NCBI GenBank assembly: GCA_021234155.1
Contig: JAJEKV010000004.1
Coordinates: 14,476,716 to 14,540,715, forward strand
Origin: Isoetes taiwanensis
Lineage: Eukaryota > Streptophyta > Lycopodiopsida > Isoetales > Isoetaceae
Direction: 5' to 3'
DNA length: 64,000 nucleotides
Position numbers and translations under genes: made by a program
Shown: positions 6,114 through 55,590 of the stretch, one piece after another
Layout: each line of letters begins with the position of its first letter
Position numbering within the stretch: the stretch's first letter is position 1
The notes under the pieces: model-generated
Databases searched by the model: none
The model's input: the letters and a program-made list of their open reading frames with translations, nothing else
Told to the model about the DNA's origin: nothing

Positions 6114-7184
6114 TTAGGCAACAGGGGGCCTTAGGACATGATCTTGAGAAGTGTCTACTGAAGCTGGTGGCATCCATTGCCACATGGCCATGCCTGGATA
6201 ACCAGGTAAAGGATTTGGCTTGCCTGATGCAGCCTGCGTTTGAGCATGAAATGCGGCTGCAGCAGCAGCATGAGCAGCTGCAGCATGCATTTGCATTGCT
6301 GCAGGGTGAGGCATAAAGGTTGGTGGAATAGAAACATTCTTAAGCTGTTGTTCCAATCGTTCCTTCTCTGCCTTCAACCTAAGTTTCTCATCCCGAAGTT
6401 CGTTCTTCTCAGTCTGCACCAAGGCACAGCATGGATAATAAACAAATAGTGCAGTTATAATAGTACTGTTAAGCTAATGATAAAATGGTACCTTCAATTC
6501 TTTTATGGAATCCCGCAATTGTTTGTTCGACTCTTTTAACTGCTGAGCTTCTGCACGAAGCTGTGTCAACACACGAACTGCATCACTCAATATTGTGGCT
6601 TTGTCTGCTTTTGGTGGTCGTCCTGGCTCCAATGCAGCAGATAGCTCTAGAAACCTGTGTTGAAATAATTACTAATTAAATATAGAATGTATAATAGTAT
6701 GAGAATAGTCTGTTTATACAACTTACTTGTCATTTAACCTATCCCTGCGCATTTTTTCGCGACATGCTTTGTTTCCAATCCCACTGCAAGATTCATCCCT
6801 AGACCTGTCAAAATGACAGGCCAACAAACACATTAGGTGGAAAAAACAGGCTAGAATAATAGTCTTGAAAATTTTCCTATGCATGCTTATTCTCCTAATA
6901 AAGATTATTACCTTTTGCGCGGGCAAGTTCTCTCAATGTCCTCTGACTCCCCCCTCAAGCAGCAATTGTCAACACTATACACAAGTGCACAAACTTAACA
7001 AAGAGTATGCATGCATTGATTTCTAACTCAAACCAGTTTATAACCAAAGATAAAAATACCTGCAGTCTACTTGATCAGATGGTGGATTGCACCAGAAAAA
7101 GGGACCAGAAGGCTGTGAAGAATCATCCTCCAAAAGATTATCCGCTAAAAACGTCATCCATTTCTGGTTTTGAGGGGAGGACAT
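6114..7184 (-). CDS. ILR3-like: bHLH transcription factor, group IVc (ILR3/bHLH105-like), complete
   Basis: Five exons on the minus strand join in frame: 7184-7060, 6974-6912, 6804-6727, 6654-6492 and 6413-6114 (729 bases, 242 residues plus stop). All four introns are GT-AG and 72-107 bases long. The start is an ATG giving MSSPQNQKW, resembling the N-terminus of Arabidopsis ILR3 (about 234 residues). Around residues 60-90 lies a CPRKR basic patch followed by the basic region NKACREKMRRDRLNDK, then the helix-loop-helix with LEPGRPPKADKATIL. A leucine-rich coiled coil follows (LKAEKERLEQQL), then an Ala/His-rich stretch and the conserved C-terminus PPASVDTSQDHVLRPPVA. Group IVc factors act in the nucleus as dimers that switch on iron-deficiency genes, and their C-terminal tail is implicated in recognition by BRUTUS-type E3 ligases. 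Function here is inferred from the family. No defect is visible. Confidence 0.95.
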
Positions 7185-20142: not shown

Positions 20143-20374
20143 TACAACAACCATTCTTTTAATATATTGATGACACAGTTCTTCAAAAAAAAAAAAAACT
20201 GGCATTTTATTTTTGGTTAATTTGCTTAAATTTTGGATTGAATGGTGTTGTTGTACAACAAGAATTACAACTTGAACACTACGCAAGTTTGTTTAAACAT
20301 TTCTTGTTTAATTAAGACTTTCTACCTATTCATAAAACAAGGTAATATGCAACACACCTTTAATTTTTCAGTTT

Positions 20375-20974
20375 TTGCTCTCTGACTTGTATGAGGAGCA
20401 TATGAATTTTGGTGAGTCAGAGTACCTGAGCAGGATTGGAAGTTTGGTGCTGCAATTGGCTAGAGTGAAGGCAGTCGTCTCTACAGAAGACCAGATAGCC
20501 GTTCTCTTAAAGAGACTAGCATCAGACTTTAAGGTAGCAATCACCACTTTGACAAATATTCCCAATCAATCTATGGAGACTTTAGTGGCAGCCCTTTTAG
20601 AAGAAGAAAGGAAGCTTAAGGGGGAAGGCAGTGTGAAGAATTCTGCCTTTGTTGCCCAAGAAGGAAGGAGAGGAACCAATAGGAACTTTGATCCCAATTA
20701 TCAACACCCTCAATTTTCTAGTAGCCCTCCATTCATGAAGAGAAGAGCAACTTCAAGCTCACCTAGGGGAAGAAGGGCGTCTTGTTTTAACTGTGGCAAG
20801 CCCGGATATCATGCGCAAGAGTGTAGAACGCGACCATCCAACAATATTCGAAGTCCTCCTTCCAGAAATTTTCGCAATGCTCATCGGTCAGGCCCCAATC
20901 GAGATAGTCAACATGGAGCGAAACTATTTATGGTTAGTACATCCGCCAATTTGAATTTTACTCCACTTAAATAA
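20375..20974 (+). pseudogene. gag: Copia gag, C-terminal part with zinc knuckle
   Basis: This frame reads ESEYLSRIGSLVLQLARVKA, LLKRLASDFKVAITTLTNI, MSETLV-like helix LVAALLEEERKL, then a Ser/Arg-rich linker and a CCHC zinc knuckle CFNCGKPGYHAQEC. The knuckle keeps all four metal ligands (C-x2-C-x4-H-x4-C). The frame ends in TAA right before the protease. It continues the gag gene interrupted at 17575. Confidence 0.92.
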
Positions 20975-20981
20975 ATATATT

Positions 20982-21329
20982 TGATTGGATTCGTGTGCCT
21001 CTCTCCATATGACCCCCTTTCGGGAACTCTTTGACACGCTAGAGCCGTCTGTTGATACGGAAGTATATGTTGGGAATAACTCTGCCCATAGAATTGAGGG
21101 GGAAGGGAATATAATGGTACAGTTGGGAGAATATGTCCATGTTATTCATAATGTGCACTATGTCCCTAGGTTGACCCATATCCTACTATCCATCGGCAAG
21201 ATTGCAGATGCGGGCATGCAAATCTTGTTTATACATAACAAACGCATGATTTATGATGAGTTAGGTGAAGTTCTGACAAATGGCACTCGTATGGATGGTT
21301 TATATCAGCTGGATGCTTGCACACAATAA
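20982..21329 (+). pseudogene. pol: Copia aspartic protease region
   Basis: The frame reads LDSCASLHMT, then VYVGNNSAHRIEGEGNIMVQ, VHYVPRLTHILLSIGKIADAG and TRMDGLYQLDA. In active Copia proteases the catalytic motif is D-S-G-A-S; here it is D-S-C-A-S, so the glycine of the active loop is lost. A TGA at 20982-20984 sits where Trp is usual, just upstream. Both changes indicate inactivity. Confidence 0.88.
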
Positions 21330-21366
21330 CCCCTTAGACTTGATTGTTAATCAAGAACATCCACCT

Positions 21367-22082
21367 TGAGACTTTGGTATGAGCGGTTTGGACATCTACA
21401 TCCCCAAGCCTTACATACTCTAGTACGAGAATATATTGTTGTTGATCTCCCTTATTTAGATGATACTAATTTGGAGTTTTGTGAGGCTTGTGTTATGGGC
21501 AAACAATGAAGACAATCTTTTCTAGTGGGAGGAGGCACAAGAGCGGAGCATGTGCTGGAATTGATTCATTCTGATGTATATGGGCCCATGCAGATGATGT
21601 CCATTGAAAATAAGAAATATATGATGACCTTCATTGACGATTTTTCCAAATTTATCACTGTTAGATTGTTGGCCCGAAAATCTGAAGTCTTTGATGCATT
21701 TCATGCTCAAGTGGAACATCAAACTGGCTGCCATATCCGGATGCTGCATAGTGATAATGGTGGAGAATATGTTTCTAATGAGTTTAAGAATTATTGTAGG
21801 GACTTGGGTATTCATCATCAATTGACCATCCGTTATACCCCTCAGCAGAATGGAATCGCTGAGGGAATGAATAGAACTTTATTGGAAACTGCTAGGACCG
21901 TGCTCAACCATGCTGGTCTACCTCATAAATTTTGGGGTGAAGCAGTAATGACCGTTGCCTATTTGGCAATAGACTTCCCACAAGTGCTTTGCGTGGTCAA
22001 ACCCCTTATCAAGGTTGGACTGGCCGGCAACCTATTAATCATTTGCGCATATTTGATTGCATTGCCTATGCACAATTTTTGA
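21367..22082 (+). pseudogene. pol: Copia integrase
   Basis: The zinc-binding HHCC region reads RFGHLHPQALHTLV and EFCEACVMGKQ, then a TGA, then the core. The catalytic triad is visible: first Asp in ELIHSDVYGPM, second Asp in MLHSDNGGEYVS, Glu in NGIAEGMNRTLLETAR, with the normal spacing. After AVMTVAYLA a frameshift near 21970-21990 moves into the next frame (TPYQGWTGRQPINHLRIFDC), which runs into the RT region. One stop and one frameshift inactivate an otherwise well-preserved domain. Confidence 0.92.
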
Positions 22083-23153
22083 ATGCTAAGAGAAAGAAGC
22101 TCAACATGAAAAGTGAGAAGTGTGTTCATATGGGATATTCTAGCGAGTCCAAGGCTTGTCGGTTGTTTTCTCTCACAATTAATACTTTGATCATTAGCCG
22201 TGATGTTGCCTTGAATGAGCTTTTATTTTATGGGGGAGCAAGTACATCAATCATGGGAAGACAATTTCTTGATATTGATTTATTGGATGACTGGTGTTCA
22301 GACTCTCAAGATGAAGACCTGATAGTTGCCCCAATAGCCCCAACCTCATCTTCTACTCTATCGTCTGTTGGGGCAGCCACTTCTTCTTTTGATATGACTG
22401 ATATTGAAGATCTTGAACAGGTAATCCAACATTCAAGTACTTACGCAGGTGTTACAAGACCTTCCAGAACAATCACGCCTACTCCGGATGGAAGCTTGAA
22501 GCCTCATCGTGGAATAACTCGATCTGGATGTGTGAGCTATCTTAGTCAAAAGCTATTGAAGCTCAATCTTCTAGCTCCAGATCTCATAAGCACGCTAGAG
22601 AACTCTTGGTTGCTGCCCCCACATGTTCAGGAACCCCTCAATGTTCATGAAGCATTGACTAGTCCTTTTGCACAAGAATGGAAACAAGCTATGGACGAAA
22701 AATATGAGTCTCTTATGAAGAACCAAACTTGGAAGCTTATTCCATTACCTCAGCCGCTTCAAGTGGTAAGCACAAAGTGGTTGTTCAAGGTTAAGAGAGA
22801 CGCCGCAGGTCAAATTCAGTGATATAAAGCCAGATTCGTAGCGCGTATTGCTGGTCTTCATTGAAACCTTCTTTCTAGTAGTTCGAATGTCCTCCATAAG
22901 GACTCTCTTGTTAATTGCAACTCAATTTAATTTAGAGGTACATCAAATGGACGTGCAAACGGCCTTCTTGCATGGTATTCTTCAAGAGGAAGTCTATGTT
23001 TCCCAACCCGAATGTTATATTGCACCAGGGCTGAGGAAAATTGATTACGCCAATCACCTCGAGCTTGGTTTGATCATATTAACACCTTCCTGGGTCAGCT
23101 TGGTTTTCAAAGTCGAACCATTGAAAGGAGCATCAAACATGTTAAAAAATTGA
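22083..23153 (+). pseudogene. pol: Copia integrase tail and reverse transcriptase, truncated before YVDD
   Basis: The frame from about 21989 continues KCVHMGYSSESKACRLFS (integrase C-terminal domain), then a Ser/Thr-rich linker, then the RT start EWKQAMDEKYESLMKNQTWK and VVSTKWLFKVKRD. A TGA follows GQIQ. The next frame has VVRMSSIRTLLLIATQFNLE, VHQMDVQTAFLHGILQEEVY and SQPECYIAPG. The catalytic Asp of the first palm motif (QMDVQTAFLHG) is present. Similarity ends near 23153, before YVDD and RNase H. Confidence 0.9.
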
Positions 23154-24271
23154 ACCATTAAATTAATCCCCCCCGGACCCCCCCAGTTGTTTTTGCTGAT
23201 ATTCGTGCAGGGCGTCCATATCTGTACGGAATAAATATAAATGTTTTACGAAATATGTATGAATGTTGTACGAAATGTGTATAGAAATATATCTGTACGG
23301 AATAAATATAAATGTTGTACGAATTATGTAATGTTGTACGAAATGTGTATAGAAATTAAAAAAAACAAAAACAAAGATGGCCTAGGGGTGTGCATGGGTC
23401 GAAAAATTTTTGGGTGGTTCTATATAACACGAGGTCCATACTTAGAAAATGTTGCAATGGAACCATATAGAAAATGGGTCATGGGGTATGAAATAATATT
23501 AATATAGTAAAGAACATGGGATACCGTATGTTGTAGAATACAACGAAGTATAAATATCCCTAGTCGAACCCACCGTCTTCTTTGGTAGGTTGCCGTGCAG
23601 CCTTGAATACCTTAGACCTAGAAATAAGTTTGTCCATTGGCAGCAAGTTAGTTTATTACAACTTGCAACTTTGATCTCGTGTGGAATAACCCTTGCCCAA
23701 CACGCACTTCACAGCTATACAATTATACAACTTGGCAAAACTTCAAAGCTTTCTTCAGGTGGATGCACATGACAAAGAGGCTTGTAAATTATGCTATGAG
23801 AGGTATACCCTTTTGTTCTTCTCTGAAGGACTAAAATACAAGCAAAAGCAACGAGATTCTAATGAACATAGTACTGGACTTTGCTGCCTGCATGAACACA
23901 GCTTGCTACTCGAGCATAATAAGCTATATCTATATGAATTGGGGATTTGTGAGTTCTAACTCTCATACAAACAAGCTAAACTGCAAATTTACCGTGAAGA
24001 TGAATGTTGTATGTCTCTTATATAAAAATACCTATATGGCCGCAAAAGAAAGTAAGCAATGTGCCATGCGTGGTGTTAAGTACTAAAGGGACTCAACATG
24101 CATGCATTGCATGGTATGCATGCACTGTGTACATGCCAAAACCATAGAATGGGAGTGCAAACTAACAAGAAATACAACACGCGCTCTATAAATACTGTTG
24201 ACATACCCTCACACAAATACAGCAACAGAATCATATGCAAACCATAGCAAAATAGTCGTATAATGGCATTA
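23154..24271. other. Unassigned sequence with a tandem duplication
   Basis: A C-rich run at about 23167-23185 follows the truncated RT. At about 23219-23357 a block containing CTGTACGGAATAAATATAAA and TGTTGTACGAAATGTGTATA is duplicated in tandem, about 67 bases per copy. From 23360 to 24271 there are only short frames without recognisable motifs; GCATGCATTGCATGGTATGC near 24100 is a small palindromic region. Confidence 0.5.
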
Positions 24272-26945
24272 CTCACACCTCTCAAAGGGATATTGCTAAC
24301 ACTTTTCATGATAAATTCAAGGATCTCTTTCAGTGTAAGCCTATTCCTTCCAATGATCTCCAGAATGCTAATGCTTTTAACTCTCTTATTAATATTATTC
24401 TTCCTTCTGCTTCTGATACTACAGATTCCTCTATGATCTCTATGCCTTCACAAGATGAAATCCTTAACATTCTTATTAGTTTCAGCAATGGGAAATCCCC
24501 TGGTCCAGATGGCCTTCCTGCTGAATTCTATGTTAAATTCTGGGATATTCTTAAAAATGATCTTACTTCTCTTGTGCATGCCTTCAGGAGTGCTGAACAT
24601 TTGCATCCTTCTATCTCTAGTGGTTTCATCTCCTTGATTCCCAAGATCGATCATCCTACCAAACTTCAAGACTGGCAGCCTATTTCTCTAACAAACACTA
24701 CTTATAAGTTCTGTGCTGAAATCATTGCTTCCAGGATTAAGAATTATCTTCAGAAGAATATCAGCCTTAATCAATCTGCTTTTCTTCCCAAAAGATATAT
24801 TCTGGTATGTGGCTATTATGGAGGGTCTCCATTGGAATAGGATCTCTAAGCAGAATTGTGTTCTTCTTAAACTAGACTTTAAATGGGCTTTTGATTCAGT
24901 GAGATGAGATTTTCTTGACTTTGCAATGTCTAAGGTTGGTTTCCTTCTCAAGCTAAAAAATCTCATTTTTTGTCTAAATTCTAGATCTAATTCAGCTGTT
25001 ATTATCAATGGTTCTCCATCTAGATTCTTCCCCCTTACTTGTGGTGTTAGGCAAGGCTTTCCTCTTGCTCCTTATCTTTTTCTATGAGTTGCTTACTAAA
25101 GCTATTTCTCATTTTCAGAGTCTTGGTCTTATTAAATGTCTTCAACTTCCTGAGTCCAATGAATTCCTTAGTATTCTTCAATATGTTGATGACTCCTATG
25201 GAGTTCTTTCTGAAAATTCTTAAGCAATTCTCAGCCGCTTCTGGTATCCAGCTTAACATTGACGAGCTTGATAGTTGGAGATACTACTCATCAAAGTTGG
25301 GCTGGTATTAAAGTTCTCTCCCCTCTTCAAACTACTAAATTGTTGAGTATGCCTCTATATTTGAATCATAGTATCAAAGGTCTGTGGGATCCTATTCTTT
25401 CTACAATCAAGAAGAAGCTGAATAGTTACAAGACTACTCTATCCCTTGCTGGTAGAACTGTAATTGCAAACTCAATCTTAGCGAGTGTAGCTCCTAAACT
25501 AATCCATCATGATCTGGAGAAAATTATACGAGGCTCCATCTGGAATGGTAAACATCAACTGGGCTCTATTTGTAGATCTAAGGTCTTAGGGGGCTTGGCT
25601 GCAAGAATTTATTTCTTCAAGCTCAATCCTTAGCAGGTAAGTTCATCTGGAAGGCCATTCATAGTAGTCAATCTCCTGCCTCCAAGTTCATTAGATACTG
25701 GATTCATAAAAGTCATCCTTATGGTCATCCTTCTATTCAGCATCTGCTTCCTCAATGTGCCTTTGTTAATCTTAAGCCTGCCACCAATATCTATCCTCTG
25801 ATGTGAAATTTAATTAACGCTTGAAATTCTCTCTCTCCAAACTATGCTTTTATTTCAAGAGACAAAGTTGATAGTGAAATGCCTATATTTTTTGGAATCC
25901 AATTCTTGTAGATCATGATTCCACTATGCTGGTTGTTCGACATCCAAAGATTTGCAATAAATGATGTGGACAGAATTATCTCTTGGACTAAGCTAAAAGA
26001 TCTCATTAGAGGCATCTCCTCGGATAAAAAATTCTTCTTCCATATTAAGAATCTCCTGTGTAATCTCTCTGCCAGTCCAGGGAATGGAGATTGGTCTATT
26101 GATGGCAATTTCTGACACAGGTTTCAGTTATATTAAAGATCTTTTCTTAAGGGATAGGATTATCTCTTGGACTAAGCTAAAAGAGCTCATTAGGGATACC
26201 TCCTCGGATAAAAAAGTCTTATTCCATATTAAGAATCTTCTGTGTAATCTCTCTGCCAGTCCAGGGAATGGAGATTGGTCTATTGATGGCAAGGTGGGAT
26301 ATAATGTGAGGACTGTGTATAATGCTCTCTCTGCTAATGTTACAAATTGTAAAACAATGACAAAGTAGCCAATCAATACTGATCAGCTTAATATCTTATT
26401 CTCCAATGTTTGGAACTTTTATTGTCCTTCCAGGATTTCTTATTTCATTTGGCTGATTGCTAATGGCAGTTTGAATAATCTTTATTCTTTATCAAGAAGG
26501 AATTCTAATATTTCGGCAAATTGTCCCATGCTCTGTGATAATGATGAAAATATGAGTCATATCTTTTTCTGCAATAAGCTAAACGGGTTTTGGTCTTGGT
26601 CAACTAACAAGTTTTGAATTTCTCATAATCGAGATCTTCTGTCTATTCTTCAATCTGATGACAAATTCACTAACACTATTATTCATTCTCACCTTTGGAA
26701 TATCTGGAAATCAAGAAGCCATGTTTTATATGGAGATAAAAGACTTTCTATTTTTTGGATTAAGCTGCATTTTCAATTTGACTTTGAAACTCTTGCTACT
26801 GCTCACAAAAAAATATTTGGTCCTAACTATGACAGGAAATGGGATTCATGTGGAGAGTACAGTGGTTGTTTTGATTTGTTTGCTTCAAATTTGAATGTAG
26901 TAGATTCTAACATCCTCTTTTATGATGATCCTAGAATATCTTGAG
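24272..26945 (+). mobile_element. 5'-truncated L1-type LINE, ORF2 from RT to the 3' zinc domain
   Basis: Similarity starts at SQRDIANTFHDKFKDLFQCK, just upstream of the RT. RT blocks follow in several frames: GKSPGPDGLPAEFYVKFW, QDWQPISLTNTTYKFCAEII, SLNQSAFLP, LLKLDFKWAFDSV, PLTCGVRQGFPLAPYLF, and YVDDS at the catalytic site (normally YADD or FADD in L1). Further on come a connection region and a C-terminal zinc-binding-type block (SRISYFIWLIANGSLNNL, CDNDENMSHIFFC). At least six frameshifts or stops are present. The missing 5' half (ORF1 and endonuclease) is typical of incomplete target-primed reverse transcription. Confidence 0.9.
25969..26292 (+). repeat. 140-bp direct duplication inside the LINE
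   Basis: The stretch encoding RIISWTKLKDLIR and LCNLSASPGNGDWSIDG appears twice, starting near 25969 and near 26153 (offset 184 bases). The copies are about 90% identical, with most differences in the middle. The repeat is not part of the LINE structure and is a local duplication after or during insertion. Confidence 0.88.
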
Positions 26946-44029: not shown

Positions 44030-45985
44030 ATATTTATTTATTTATTTAACTAGCTCGCTTAGGACCCTGAAGAGAGCCATGGAGCCTGCAAATCATTACA
44101 ATCATAACTTTAGTAGTAAGGAACGGTGTGCATCCACCGCCCTTAAGTATAGACCCAAATCGAAATATGATAATGAAAATAAGGATCTGAAATCTTGAAC
44201 TTTGATTGTGTACTTCTCTCTTATTTCTGAATATGCTGGGCAGTAAGCAAACACATGATCTTCATTTTCTATACATTGCATAGCGCAGGCCTTGCAAGTC
44301 CTTTCCTCAATAGGGATTTTGTGCCATCTGCCTGTCTCAATAGCTAATCTATGGGAACTGGTTCTGTAACGTGCAATCACTTGTTTCAATGGTCTCGGGA
44401 TGTCCGAATCCAAGTATCCCTGGCTGCCCTGTTCTAGAGTCTGATTAATATAGGTCTTGTAATGATGCATCCGGCTACCAGGGGAGGACCATAAATTTTC
44501 ATTGGCCACTGAACTAGCGAGTCGTGCATCGATTTGTTCTCCCAGGCCGGTTTGCTTCCACATCACGCCCCATCTACCCCAATTCATCGGATCCCGATAC
44601 CATCCTTGCTTTGCTCCGAATTCACCATTCTTTGCATGGGATAATCTGTCCGGTGCACCTTTTTTCAACCTCGTTTACAAAATTGATGGCTTGGAACAAA
44701 GCCTCCACTTCAATGAGAAACCTGTTTCAAAAAGCAAGATTGCATATGGGATCTGGTATCTAGTGCCAAGCTCATGTTGAATGAAGGTTTTCTGCACGTT
44801 TTCAATTTGATTCCAAAGCTTTTTGGAGATATTCGGCCCCCAAATAGGTGAACCATAAAGGGTGACTGTTTGCACCAATGTTTTGAACAGAATCTTCTTC
44901 AATCCCCAATTATGTAATGCTGCCTTGGAACACCTGTATAACATACCGTATAGTGCAGATTTGCCGCCCGTGACTCCATTTTTGATGCATTCCTTCCAGT
45001 TAGGAAAAATCTATCCCTAAATATCTGTAACATTCTATTGTCTGCAACTCGCTTCCACCATACATGAATTTTGGCCGATCCCTAGTTCCAAAGATCATAA
45101 CCTTTGATTTTGAAAGATTTACTTTCATTTGTTTAGCAGCACTAAATGCTTCTAGGCTATCCAGGTGGCATTGTAAGACTTTCTCCTTGTTTGCCATCAA
45201 AGCCACATCATCTGCATACATAAGAAGTTGAACTATGTATGAACCGAGTGGTGTACCTGCTAAGGATCTCATTCTGAGCCATTCCTCAAGTTCATCTATG
45301 AATAAGCCAAACAAAGTGGGGGAAAGCGGGCATCCTTGGCGTACACCGATGGTGTTTTTGACCAAATCATTCACATCCCAGCTCAGTTTAATGAGTACCT
45401 CTGAGTACAAAAGTGAGATTGGCCTCTTATCTCGATGGGAACTCCGATGCGTGCCATTCGCTCACCTAGCTCTCTCCTGGAGACTGTATCAAATGCTTTG
45501 GAGAAGTCAATAAATGCAACGTACAGAGCACGGTTAGGGGCCTTTGCCTTTTCGACAAGCACTCTGAGAGCAAGGGCATGATCTAAAGTGTTATGCTCTC
45601 TGCAAAATCCTGCTTGGAAACCCGACCGTTTTTTGTTTTCTTCTGCCCAAGAACTAAGTTTCTTTTTCAACAAACTTCCCAGTATCTTAGCAAATGTGCT
45701 CCCAATCAATATGGTTCTGTAATTTGCTGCCTCTGTCTTGTCGCCCAACTTGTGAATAGGATGCACTCTATTGAGTTTCCAGTTGGCAGGAAGGCCTTCG
45801 TTCACGCTGCCATTCAACAAACGTGTCAGTGCTGCCCATGTTTTTTGCCCGCTCCATTTCACCAGCTCTATGCAAATGCCATCCAAATCATGTGCTTTAC
45901 CATTTGCCATCTCTGAAACTGCTTCTTGTACTTCTGCCTCTGTAAACAGTGAACCGTGAATGGTCAGAATTTGCATGCTATCAGA
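44030..45985 (-). mobile_element. Non-LTR retrotransposon, RT and C-terminal zinc region, with (TAAA)n tail
   Basis: On the minus strand: RT fingers VSEMANGKAHDLDGICIELV, LNRVHPIHKLGDKTEAANYR, palm AFIDFSKAFDTVSR, GVRQGCPLSPTLFGLFIDEL, catalytic YADDVALMANKEK, then VNLSKSKVMIFG, FKTLVQTVTLYGSPIWG, and a C-terminal Cys/His block CKACAMQCIENEDHVFAYC. The YADD site and first Asp are intact. Frameshifts lie near 45400, 45000 and 44670, so no full protein is made. The 3' end is a (TAAA)n microsatellite at about 44033-44049. No endonuclease is visible upstream, so it is 5'-truncated. It is related to, but distinct from, family A. Confidence 0.92.
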
Positions 45986-46144
45986 GACTACATGACTACA
46001 CCTAGTGATAGGGACTTAGTTTGAAATATGGTCCAAAAAATTCAAGAACTCGGTCTATTACTGTATCAAATGATCCGGGTTAAATAAGGCCATTCCAAGG
46101 ACGATTGCTGCAGTCTGAACAACCAAGCTTTCAAGAAATCAATG

Positions 46145-52521: not shown

Positions 52522-54875
52522 ATGTCAAAGAAAGGAGCTTCAGCCCCATCAAAGGGCAAAAGCAAGGATCCTTCTGGTTAGATAATTAATGCACTAATAG
52601 TTTAAAACACCTGGAAAGATGAATAATCCATTTTATTTGTGCTATCGTCTTTGCATTTTACATAGCAGATGTCATAGACTCTAATCAATGGGATGGGGAC
52701 TTATTCTATGTGGAAAAACAACGTTCTTTGCATTTTATATAGCAGATGTGGTAGACTCTAATCAACTTATGATAGTGTTGGGATGGGGATCTATTCCATG
52801 TGGAAACACAGTGCATGTGCATGTGTTTCTACAAAATCCCAATCCCAAAACTCTCATAAGTTGATTAGAGTCTACAACATCTGCGATGTAAAATGCAAAA
52901 GACCGTAGCACAATGTTTCATAACAAAATGCATGTGCTTTTACACCCTTCATCAGTCTAAAACACCACGCATGCACTTTACAACACCTTGAACGTGAGCA
53001 ACCCTGCTGCTTGAGGACTAGTTCAATATATGGTAAAGCACTTGCTTTCAAGTGGTCGTTCACTAATGGCTCATTTTTCAACGTGGCCTGAGAGCCATGG
53101 TATGGTTGGTCTTTATTCTCATCTACTTCAATTCTCAACCCACAACACAACTAAACACAATAGCTTACTACACGGGAAAGGATGCAATTTCAGTTGGACT
53201 CGTGACTCTTAGTTGCGTGCACGTGTGTGTGTGTAACAAAATGCAACAAATAGATATATAAATTTGCCCAACTACAATCATATTGTGATTGTAGCAACTT
53301 TTAAATCTAGAAGTGAACTTTAGTCGCATTCTACAGTTCATTCTGAATTTACCTTACATTATCTAGAGCCACCAAGGTTATATAAATGCAACTAACTGGT
53401 CTCCATGTTTTAAAATATTTTTCTACTTGACATTGTCGAGGCATCCATGCAGCGATAGCAGAAGGGGCCCCGCCATCGGGAGTAGTTGGAAGCCACAACA
53501 AGAGGGCGGTCAGGGGTAGCAAAATGGGCCCCGCAACCGGCAGTACCTAGTAGTCACAACAGGAGGGGCCCAGCGATCGGCGGTAGCCAGGAGCGGAAGT
53601 TGGGTGTTGACTCTGTGTTTGATTTTTGCTTCATGTTTAGTTTTAGAAGTCTCTGGCGAGATTGCTCTATTCTTGGCTCCTTCAATCTTTTTCCCTCCAT
53701 CTGCAGCTCCAAGAAGACCATGCTTTAGAGGTTTAGAAGCTGCGAACAATGCAAACAAATCCTGTTCACAGCTTTTCTTCCAGGTTTTGGAGCTCGATGG
53801 TTTTTTGCTACTGGGTGAGCAAAATGTTCATCCCAAGTTCCATTTCATGATGGACAAATGGGACACGTGGTGCTACGAGAACAAATATGGCGACCCAACT
53901 TCTATTTTATTTTCCAAGGATGTCCAATAAACAAAATAATTTTAATGTGCTTAAAGCTTCTTCATATGGAGTGATATAGTAATGGATATTGTAGTGACTT
54001 TCTTTGTCATGTACTATTGCAGCACTTACAGAATCAGTACGCACATTGGGAAAGTTTTATTACTCCAACAATGCGACTTATGGTATATGTCCTCTTATTT
54101 ACATGTACAAAATATTGTCTAACAACGATAAGTCAATGCATGCACAGAAGGGGAGTGGATTACATTGGATCCATCTGTTGTTCCAACAAGTAAACCAACT
54201 CCTCCAACTTTAGAGGCAAACACAATAGGTAACAATTGACTTCCTTAGATCCCTTTGTATTCAAAAATAAATTTGAATTAGGATGCCATTTTGGCCCACT
54301 TTTAATTTATTTTAATAGCGTATTCATACAATCGATCATTTTACTAACTTGAAATTTAATTTATATTATAGAAAAGCCAAGATATGTTCGTGATGGGAAG
54401 GGGGTCTATGTAGATGGAAATTATCGATATGAAGGTGATTGGATCAAGGATGTCATGCATGGACAAGGTAAAATCGATCTTTAGGGAAAAATATATAGTT
54501 CTCTTTTTGTTTAAAGTATATATAGTTCTCTTTTTGTTTAAGGTCTTGTTACTCCTTTTTTATAGGGAAATTTGAATATGCTAGTGGCGCCATGTACAAT
54601 GGCCAGTGGGATAATGGGAAGTACCATGGGAATGGAGCTTATAAGGCAAGCATTCGTGTCTTATGCTTATCTAAAAATTTTAATATCAAACTTGTATATC
54701 ACCAATCTAACTTCTAATAGTCAAATATTAGTGGGCTGATAATCGATCATACGTTGGAGAATGGAGAGAAAATCGAATGCATGGACAAGGAATTTATGTG
54801 GATAAAGAGGGCCATTCATGGACGGGGCAATTTTTTAATGGCATTGGCCCAGGTCTTAATTGTAAATTGGATTGA
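52522..54875 (+). CDS. MORN2-like: MORN repeat protein, MORN2-like, complete in six coding exons
   Basis: Exons 52522-52576, 54023-54082, 54148-54228, 54372-54467, 54566-54645 and 54732-54875 join in frame (516 bases, 171 residues plus stop). All introns end in AG; four start with GT and the fifth with GC. The ATG at 52522 gives MSKKGASAPSKGKSKDPS. Then come LTESVRTLGKFYYSNNATYE and at least four MORN units: YEGEW (across exons 2/3), YEGDWIKDVMHGQGKFEYAS, YNGQWDNGKYHGNGAYKWAD and YVGEWRENRMHGQGIYVDKE, ending GHSWTGQFFNGIGPGLNCKL then D and stop. The last three units and tail match animal MORN2 in order, including the W-(T/S)-G-(Q/N)-F and final K-L. MORN2 relatives are linked to cilia, flagella and germ cells. 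In a plant this points to motile sperm, by inference. No defect is visible. Confidence 0.88.
52648..52903. repeat. Foldback repeat in the first coding intron of the MORN2-like gene
   Basis: TTTGCATTTTATATAGCAGA plus TGTGGTAGACTCTAATCAAC and more (about 52722-52808) is inverted at about 52823-52903 around the loop AGTGCATGTGCAT. The arms are about 80-85 bases. A further direct copy of the left arm lies at about 52648-52721. It resembles a small MITE or hairpin element. Confidence 0.82.
53463..53593 (+). repeat. GC-rich tandem repeat, about 2.5 copies
   Basis: A unit like GGGGCCCCGCCATCGGGAGT then AG(T/C)..GGAAGCCACAACA repeats with variation near 53463, 53526 and 53564. It stands out from the AT-rich surroundings. 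The frame following it (53604-53930; LELDGFLLLGEQNVHPKFHF, MMDKWDTWCYENKYGDPTS) lies in the same intron and is open, but I do not recognise it. Confidence 0.7.
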
Positions 54876-55147: not shown

Positions 55148-55590
55148 GTATTAATAGAATAGAATAGAATAAAATAGATTTTTTATCGTCCACGAAGACC
55201 AATTGGCCTATGGGACCCAAAGAAAAAGAGGGCAACAAGCGTATTACTGTCAGGATTAAAAAAGCCACGCCCCGAAGGGTTTTCGAGGGAAAAATCTTAG
55301 CAATAATAAGTATGCTGGTACACTGTACAATTGTAAAGGACAATTTAGTACTGTCCCGGAGGCCACAACTGAGTCCGTGTATCTAGCCCCAACAAGCCCA
55401 CGGACACTGTATTCAATAACTCATGCAGCGGCTGGTCAGGCACAACTAACCAAACATACCATGCTCGGATATGGGCAAACGCTGGGCAGATCTGAAGGGC
55501 ATGACATTCATCTTCAATGACGCCTTCATGGCAACCTGACAAAGCCTATCCTCCCATGCTTCCCGAGTCCAACGCCTGCCTGCTTAGTAA
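55148..55590 (-). mobile_element. 5'-truncated LINE (family A), C-terminus and microsatellite tail
   Basis: On the minus strand the end of the protein reads CHEGVIEDECHALQICPAFA, then HELLNTVSVGLLGLDTRTQL and a stop at 55345. The Cys/His pattern C-x-x-x..H-A-x-x-x-C is the family zinc-binding block. The 3' tail follows (CGTGGCTTTTTTAATCCTGA, TTTGGGTCCCATAGGCCAAT, TGGTCTTCGTGGACGATAAA) and ends in a degenerate (ATTCT)n run at about 55152-55176. It lies 270 bases downstream of the MORN2-like stop codon in the opposite orientation. Confidence 0.85.

What the first reader, a model, noticed from the sequence alone, without database searches (positions are those of the whole stretch)
52522..54875. 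Intact MORN2-like gene, assembled from six short exons, implying a plant with flagellate sperm
Six exons of 55-144 bases join in frame with matching phases and give a 171-residue protein whose C-terminal three MORN units and tail follow animal MORN2. No single exon is long enough to be noticed by itself. MORN2 relatives serve cilia and flagella or male germ cells; flowering plants lack flagellate sperm, so retention here would fit a fern, lycophyte, bryophyte, cycad or Ginkgo.
Basis: partly seen in the sequence, partly recalled or inferred. Interest (0 to 1): 0.75.

Follow-up and report, generated by a model that had tools for sequence, protein, structure and literature searches.

The report
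Lycophyte sperm-flagellum gene FAP227 (MORN2)
This is an ordinary, intact-looking plant copy of a small gene whose protein, in green algae and mouse sperm, is part of the central machinery that controls flagellar beating, and it fits a spore-bearing plant with swimming sperm.

Summary
Six exons (52522-54875, + strand) splice in frame to 171 aa plus TGA; four introns are GT-AG, the fifth GC-AG. Exon 1 is plausible but not proven.

Among solved structures the best match is not animal MORN2 but Chlamydomonas FAP227: 159.6 bits over residues 25-170, 77 of 143 aligned residues identical, ending at the same C-terminal tail. FAP227 sits in the PF6 complex of the C1a/C1e arms of the central apparatus. 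Mouse MORN2 sits in the same arms, modelled with CFAP119; I infer one family.

Searched back, FAP227 hits this locus first in the window's own genome. That genome also holds FAP119-like, radial-spoke, IFT46 and dynein heavy-chain exons. Its size (1,658.26 Mb) matches the Isoetes taiwanensis assembly (1,658.30 Mb), a lycophyte.

Loss in conifers and angiosperms and expression in sperm cells could not be tested. New member of a known kind, modest interest.

The parts
52522..52576 (+). Exon 1 (proposed): start codon and lysine-rich N-terminus, phase 1 donor CTG|gttaga
   Evidence: Frame and splice sites; not covered by homology; one of 87 candidate first exons within 4 kb by a crude rule
54023..54082 (+). 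Exon 2: N-terminal half MORN unit (GKFYYSNNATYEG)
   Evidence: Matches FAP227
54148..54228 (+). Exon 3: proline-rich linker
   Evidence: Aligned through to the FAP227 linker with an 8-residue gap
54372..54467 (+). Exon 4: VRDGKGVY motif and first full MORN unit
   Evidence: Pfam MORN and FAP227 alignment
54566..54645 (+). Exon 5: second MORN unit; GC-AG intron follows
   Evidence: junction continuous in the FAP227 alignment
54732..54875 (+). Exon 6: third MORN unit, FAP227/MORN2-type tail GQFFNGIGPGLNCKLD and TGA stop
   Evidence: Tail query: only FAP227 and mouse MORN2, of 19 rows, align to residue 38 of 39
52577..54022 (+). Intron 1 (1446 nt), with an inverted-repeat element (52650-52899) and a dispersed repeat (53775-53912)
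   Evidence: Repeats
55168..55173 (+). First AATAAA downstream of the stop (possible poly(A) signal)
   Evidence: Pattern only; it lies in a dispersed repeat (about 55153-55200)

Best explanation
The gene is the lycophyte (probably Isoetes taiwanensis) orthologue of Chlamydomonas FAP227 and animal MORN2, with no second copy found. Shown here: an open six-exon gene, homology from the half MORN unit to the tail, best matches both ways within the sets searched, and other axonemal gene matches in the same genome. Inferred from the algal and mouse structures: copies of this small MORN-repeat protein (two per complex in the alga) bind a CFAP119/FAP119-family protein and, with PF6/SPAG17 and DPY30, form the outer part of the C1a and C1e arms of the central pair, facing the radial spokes. 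There it would help pass mechanical signals from the central apparatus to the spokes and so to the dyneins of the swimming sperm, and it should be expressed mainly in developing sperm.
For: Match to FAP227 of 159.6 bits, next best 109.5. Tail query: FAP227 65.1 bits in total; only FAP227 and mouse MORN2, of 19 rows, align to residue 38 of 39. All-against-all of seven sequences: this protein and FAP227 are mutual best (170 bits), and mouse MORN2's best is this protein (79.7), then FAP227 (78.2), ahead of four MORN arrays of the same genome (38.9-56.2). FAP227 against the genome hits this locus first. FAP227 in the PF6 complex. MORN2 in mouse C1a/C1e, CFAP119-MORN2 complex modelled, PDB 9IJJ. 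Axoneme-gene matches in the genome: FAP119-type CLAMP exons, Radial_spoke, dynein MT stalk on 8 contigs, Radial_spoke_3, IFT46.
Against: No transcript, expression or localisation data. Exon 1 is not supported by homology. Against the whole protein mouse MORN2 (71.7 bits) is no better than radial spoke head 1 (73.6), and this protein scores 83.2 with one PIP5K-like array against 79.7 with the MORN2 piece. With FAP227 itself as query, MORN2 (71.5 bits) ranks below apicomplexan MORN1 (up to 123.5, several repeats summed), FAP266 (78.1), FAP207 (76.7) and one junctophilin (71.6). So the tie to MORN2 rests on the tail, MORN2's own best scores and published position. MORN arrays align in several registers, so best-hit tests are less clean than usual. 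FAP227's second-best place in the genome is a contiguous frame at C912 with 50.0 bits against 68.1. CFAP54_N gave no match, which the tool says is uninformative. PF6, FAP305/SPATA17 and DPY30 were not searched for.
Confidence: 0.9

Rival explanations
1. It is a different axonemal MORN protein, such as radial spoke head 1 (RSPH1/RSP1) or RSP10, and not the central-apparatus protein.
For: Radial spoke head 1 homologue chains match at 71.1-73.6 bits, level with mouse MORN2.
Against: FAP227 scores 159.6 bits and its alignment covers the half unit, linker, three units and tail. With the tail query, radial spoke head 1 chains align only to residue 29 or 33 of 39.
Confidence: 0.03
2. It is a non-flagellar plant MORN protein (PIP5K-type, MRF1-like or TIC100-like; names recalled) or a fragment of one.
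For: Other MORN loci of the same genome match at up to 49 bits per stretch and up to 83.2 bits as whole arrays; such types are present in flowering plants (recalled).
Against: FAP227 scores 170 bits in the same comparison. I saw no such tail in the frames of L004, L006, L007, L011 and L012 printed. TIC100 scores 21.2 bits. This gene's frame ends one residue after the shared tail.
Confidence: 0.03
3. It is a FAP227 orthologue that has lost its flagellar role or is starting to decay.
For: Exon 1 is uncertain, intron 5 has a GC donor, and repeats lie in intron 1.
Against: The frame is open throughout, 77 of 143 aligned residues are identical to the alga, no second copy of the exons was found, and partner-family and axoneme gene matches are present.
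Confidence: 0.04

Closest known systems
Chlamydomonas reinhardtii FAP227 (PDB 7N6G, 7SQC)
   Same: Length (173 vs 171), N-terminal half MORN unit, proline-rich linker, VRxGKGVY motif, three MORN units, GQFFNGxGPGLxCxL tail
   Different: 66 of 143 aligned residues differ; 8 residues fewer in the linker; N-terminus before the half unit not aligned
Animal MORN2 (mouse chain in PDB 9IJJ, 152 aa)
   Same: Three MORN units and a PGLxxKL tail; located in the C1a and C1e arms
   Different: 41.7% identity over 84 columns; match begins at residue 72 of this protein, so the half unit and linker were not matched; the overall score is no better than that of radial spoke head 1
Radial spoke head 1 (RSPH1)
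   Same: Axonemal MORN-repeat protein
   Different: Less than half the score of FAP227; tail not shared
PIP5K-like MORN arrays in the same genome (C1034, C941, C1073; name recalled)
   Same: MORN repeat units
   Different: Long single-exon frames, seven MORN stretches in the one scanned (L004); no FAP227-type tail seen

Membership tests
FAP227/MORN2 central-apparatus family | Homology over half unit, linker, three MORN units and C-terminal tail | tested here: met
   77 of 143 aligned residues identical to FAP227; the first 24 residues do not align
FAP227/MORN2 central-apparatus family | Family-type tail ending PGLxxxL | tested here: met
   of 19 rows only FAP227 and mouse MORN2 align to residue 38 of 39
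FAP227/MORN2 central-apparatus family | Reciprocal best match with FAP227 | tested here: met
   PDB chains, own genome and a 7-sequence set only; no other plant proteomes
FAP227/MORN2 central-apparatus family | Reciprocal best match with animal MORN2 | tested here: inconclusive
   MORN2's best in the 7-sequence set is this protein, but this protein's scores with MORN2 are level with RSPH1 and a PIP5K-like array
FAP227/MORN2 central-apparatus family | Partner FAP119/CFAP119 present in the genome | tested here: met
   Three CLAMP loci, two of the three matches with stops inside the matched stretch; a stop-free exon peptide of one matches FAP119, E 3.3e-10; intact genes not shown
FAP227/MORN2 central-apparatus family | Partners PF6/SPAG17 and DPY30 present | not tested
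   No search made
FAP227/MORN2 central-apparatus family | Location on C1a/C1e arms of the axoneme | not testable with these tools
   Needs tagging or cryo-electron tomography of sperm
FAP227/MORN2 central-apparatus family | Absent from plants without flagella | not testable with these tools
   No other plant genomes held
Radial spoke head 1 | Best match to RSPH1 | tested here: not met
   73.6 bits at most against 159.6 for FAP227
Plant PIP5K-like and other non-flagellar MORN proteins | Better match to these than to FAP227 | tested here: not met
   At most 83.2 bits against 170; TIC100 21.2 bits

The most novel reading that the evidence does not exclude
The algal-type antenna (FAP119 with FAP227, N-terminal half unit included) was kept in the land-plant lineage for as long as sperm swam and then lost, so that a single short MORN gene with the PGLxxxL tail marks flagellate sperm across land plants, and the lycophyte central pair keeps the spoke-facing C1a/C1e machinery of algae.
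Probability: 0.6. Interest if true: 0.4.

Novelty: new member of a known kind. Interest (0 to 1): 0.3.

Why it matters
It gives a precise name and a testable position in the axoneme to a small multi-exon plant gene whose exons are too short to stand out singly. It links algal FAP227 and animal MORN2 through a plant sequence that both score best or near best against in the small set compared. If the pattern holds in other plants, it is a marker for tracking loss of the central apparatus when plants gave up swimming sperm. The result is expected rather than surprising.

Tried and rejected
Rejected: radial spoke head 1 and PIP5K-like identity. Rejected: chance assembly of exons. Considered, not decided: other first exons.

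Led nowhere: literature searches for MORN2 with 'land plants' (0 papers), Isoetes with '1.66 Gb', MORN with antheridia and axonem-, C1a-18 with PF6 (the name C1a-18 for FAP227 is recalled). A six-term search counted 2,692 papers; of the five listed, none held MORN2 or C1a-18. FAP227 occurs in 3 papers, one of them unrelated by title. MORN2 with 'central apparatus': 1 paper; MORN2 with Chlamydomonas: 4 papers, that one among them. CFAP54_N gave no match in the genome and rang in no control, so it says nothing. The passages of a sperm review held nothing on MORN or Isoetes. No tRNA in the window. L013, L015 and L016, other MORN loci fetched, were looked at only by eye and not classified.

Full report
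OBSERVATION. I rebuilt the gene from the raw window by script. The six exons lie at 52522-52576, 54023-54082, 54148-54228, 54372-54467, 54566-54645 and 54732-54875. They join to 516 nt, one frame of 171 residues ending in TGA. Introns are 1446, 65, 143, 98 and 86 nt, 60-76% A+T. All five acceptors end in AG. Four donors are GT; intron 5 starts with GC after AAG (AAG|GCAAGC), a recognised minor type (GC-AG; recalled).

IS IT MORE THAN CHANCE? Yes. Pfam finds three MORN stretches (60.6 bits, E 7.4e-17). Against all PDB chains the protein's best match, of 29 distinct sequences at E<=0.01, is FAP227 of Chlamydomonas, E 6.4e-46, 159.6 bits, residues 25-170 against 20-173. My own alignment gives 77 identities in 143 aligned positions (53.8%; BLASTP 51.0% over 151 columns with gaps), score 432, against a maximum of 70 in 500 residue shuffles. 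Homology runs across the exon 2/3, 3/4, 4/5 and 5/6 junctions, so those splice choices are fixed by it. Without splicing, FAP227 searched against the 1.66-Gb genome ranks exon 6 of this locus first (68.1 bits, E 9.0e-16; 14 matches listed, two of them in this gene).

WEAK POINT. Exon 1 lies before the aligned region. By a crude rule (ATG, open frame, GT donor in phase 1) 87 first exons are possible within 4 kb upstream of exon 2, the proposed one included. The proposed one has an in-frame stop ten codons upstream and a lysine-rich start; it is plausible, not proven. The N-terminal 81 residues alone match FAP227 best, weakly (27.7 bits, E 2.1e-5), and that match begins at residue 25.

WHAT IT IS. 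The protein has a half MORN unit, a proline-rich linker, a VRDGKGVY motif, three MORN units and the tail GQFFNGIGPGLNCKLD. FAP227 has a counterpart of each of these. With the 39-residue tail region alone as query, FAP227 scores 65.1 bits in total; of 19 rows only FAP227 and mouse MORN2 (PDB 9IJJ) align to residue 38. Mouse MORN2 scores 39.0 in total, with a 25.7-bit tail stretch, the best single stretch after FAP227's 56.6 among the five alignments shown; 14 rows were not shown as alignments. Two apicomplexan-type MORN1 chains score 41.6 and 39.1 in total by adding several repeats, none reaching the tail's end. In a set of seven sequences (this protein, FAP227, mouse MORN2 67-150, four MORN arrays of the same genome) this protein and FAP227 are each other's best (170 bits) and mouse MORN2's best is this protein (79.7), then FAP227 (78.2), then 56.2 or less for the arrays.

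RESULTS AGAINST. The tie to MORN2 is looser than the tie to FAP227. In one search mouse MORN2 (71.7) is no better than radial spoke head 1 (73.6). In one search this protein scores 83.2 with a PIP5K-like array of the same genome, 79.7 with the 84-residue MORN2 piece. In one search FAP227 as query ranks MORN2 (71.5) below apicomplexan MORN1 (up to 123.5), FAP266 (78.1), FAP207 (76.7) and one junctophilin (71.6). These rivals gain from summed repeats; the tail and the published position are what single out MORN2.

PUBLISHED POSITION. The paper of PDB 7N6G (PMC9113940; passages read) places two FAP227 copies in the PF6 complex (PF6, FAP114, FAP119, 2x FAP227, 2x DPY30), present in C1a and C1e, at the outer surface of the central apparatus where it can meet the radial spokes; its Extended Data legend names an antennas-like FAP114-FAP119-(FAP227)2 sub-complex. 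A review (PMC6678824; passage read) lists FAP227 in C1a. The paper of 9IJJ (PMC12297659; passages read) says C1a and C1e of mouse sperm share components such as SPAG17, MORN2, CFAP119 and DPY30 and that a CFAP119-MORN2 complex was modelled. None of the passages I read says in words that MORN2 is the FAP227 orthologue; that is my inference from position and sequence.

THE GENOME. The window lies in a 1,658,258,908-base genome of 1110 contigs. The Isoetes taiwanensis paper (PMC8566536; passages read) reports 1658.30 Mb in 204 scaffolds and 909 unplaced contigs. This makes I. taiwanensis the likely source; it is inference, not a name given by a tool. Isoetes is a lycophyte (abstract start), and lycophytes have flagellated sperm (PMC9023351, passage). 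The genome holds other flagellar gene matches: Radial_spoke (4 exon matches at one locus, best E 1.9e-36), dynein heavy-chain MT stalk (13 matches on 8 contigs), Radial_spoke_3 (3 matches at one locus), IFT46 (6 matches on 4 contigs), CLAMP (3 matches on 3 contigs, two with stops inside the matched stretch). A stop-free exon peptide of one CLAMP locus matches FAP119 (42.9 bits, E 3.3e-10) and CFAP119 (22.1 bits), so the direct partner family is there. CFAP54_N gave nothing, which the tool marks as uninformative.

COPY NUMBER. The protein search lists 17 matches; four belong to this locus and 13 to other MORN loci at 49 bits or less. The DNA of the gene gives 42 matches: itself, and repeats in intron 1 and after the stop; none of the others touches an exon. 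Only 40 of 958 candidates were scored there, and counts are lower bounds by the tool's own statement, so single copy is likely, not proven.

A better match to a non-flagellar MORN protein was looked for in PDB chains and in four arrays read from this genome; none beat FAP227. Other plant proteomes could not be searched. The Cycas study (PMC9023351; passages read) says most flagellar genes occur in Cycas, fewer in Ginkgo, while Gnetum, conifers and angiosperms lost many; its main text does not mention MORN.

MECHANISM (inferred). As in algae and mouse, the protein would bind the CFAP119-type subunit in C1a/C1e and form part of the surface that meets the radial spokes, tuning dynein activity during beating. 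Shown: gene, homology, genome context. Not shown: expression, binding, location, phenotype.

VERDICT. A correct and useful observation, sharpened from 'MORN2-like' to FAP227/MORN2. New member of a known family, expected in a lycophyte; interest modest. Searches of the open library listed no paper that I could recognise as being about this gene in a land plant, but only five of 2,692 were listed, the library lacks most subscription journals, and the species' own gene annotation was not examined.

Noticed in passing
L009, L010 (G000 C941:668376 and C1036:1136904) and C1065:3016728: Three FAP119/CLAMP-like loci; L009 and L010 are 85.5% alike over 2.4 kb of DNA, so the partner gene seems to have been duplicated as a segment; whether each copy is intact was not settled.
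   Followed up: partly
L014 (G000 C491:83300-84700), ORF 412-903: A separate MORN exon whose best PDB match is FAP266, a chain of structure 7SQC (56.9 bits; apicomplexan-type MORN1 follows at 54.9); possibly a second flagellar MORN gene.
   Followed up: partly
window 52650-52899: Inverted-repeat element in intron 1: arms of 64 nt, 91% complementary, and an outer pair of 39 nt, 92%.
   Followed up: no
window 55153-55200: Part of a high-copy dispersed repeat just after the gene, 90-98% alike at many places in the genome.
   Followed up: no
window 20336-22822 (+): Copia-type retrotransposon remains: gag, integrase core and SH3-like domains.
   Followed up: no
window 24256-24840 (+) and 45383-46015 (-): Reverse-transcriptase matches, below the Pfam cut-off in the first and above it in the second.
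   Followed up: no
window 6114-6473 (-): ORF resembling the C-terminal part of an ILR3-type plant bHLH factor (recalled; no Pfam match).
   Followed up: no
G000 C1100, C1033, C168, C135: IFT46 domain matches at four places: three matches close together on C1100 and one on each of the others, that on C135 with three stops inside; perhaps one gene plus partial copies.
   Followed up: no
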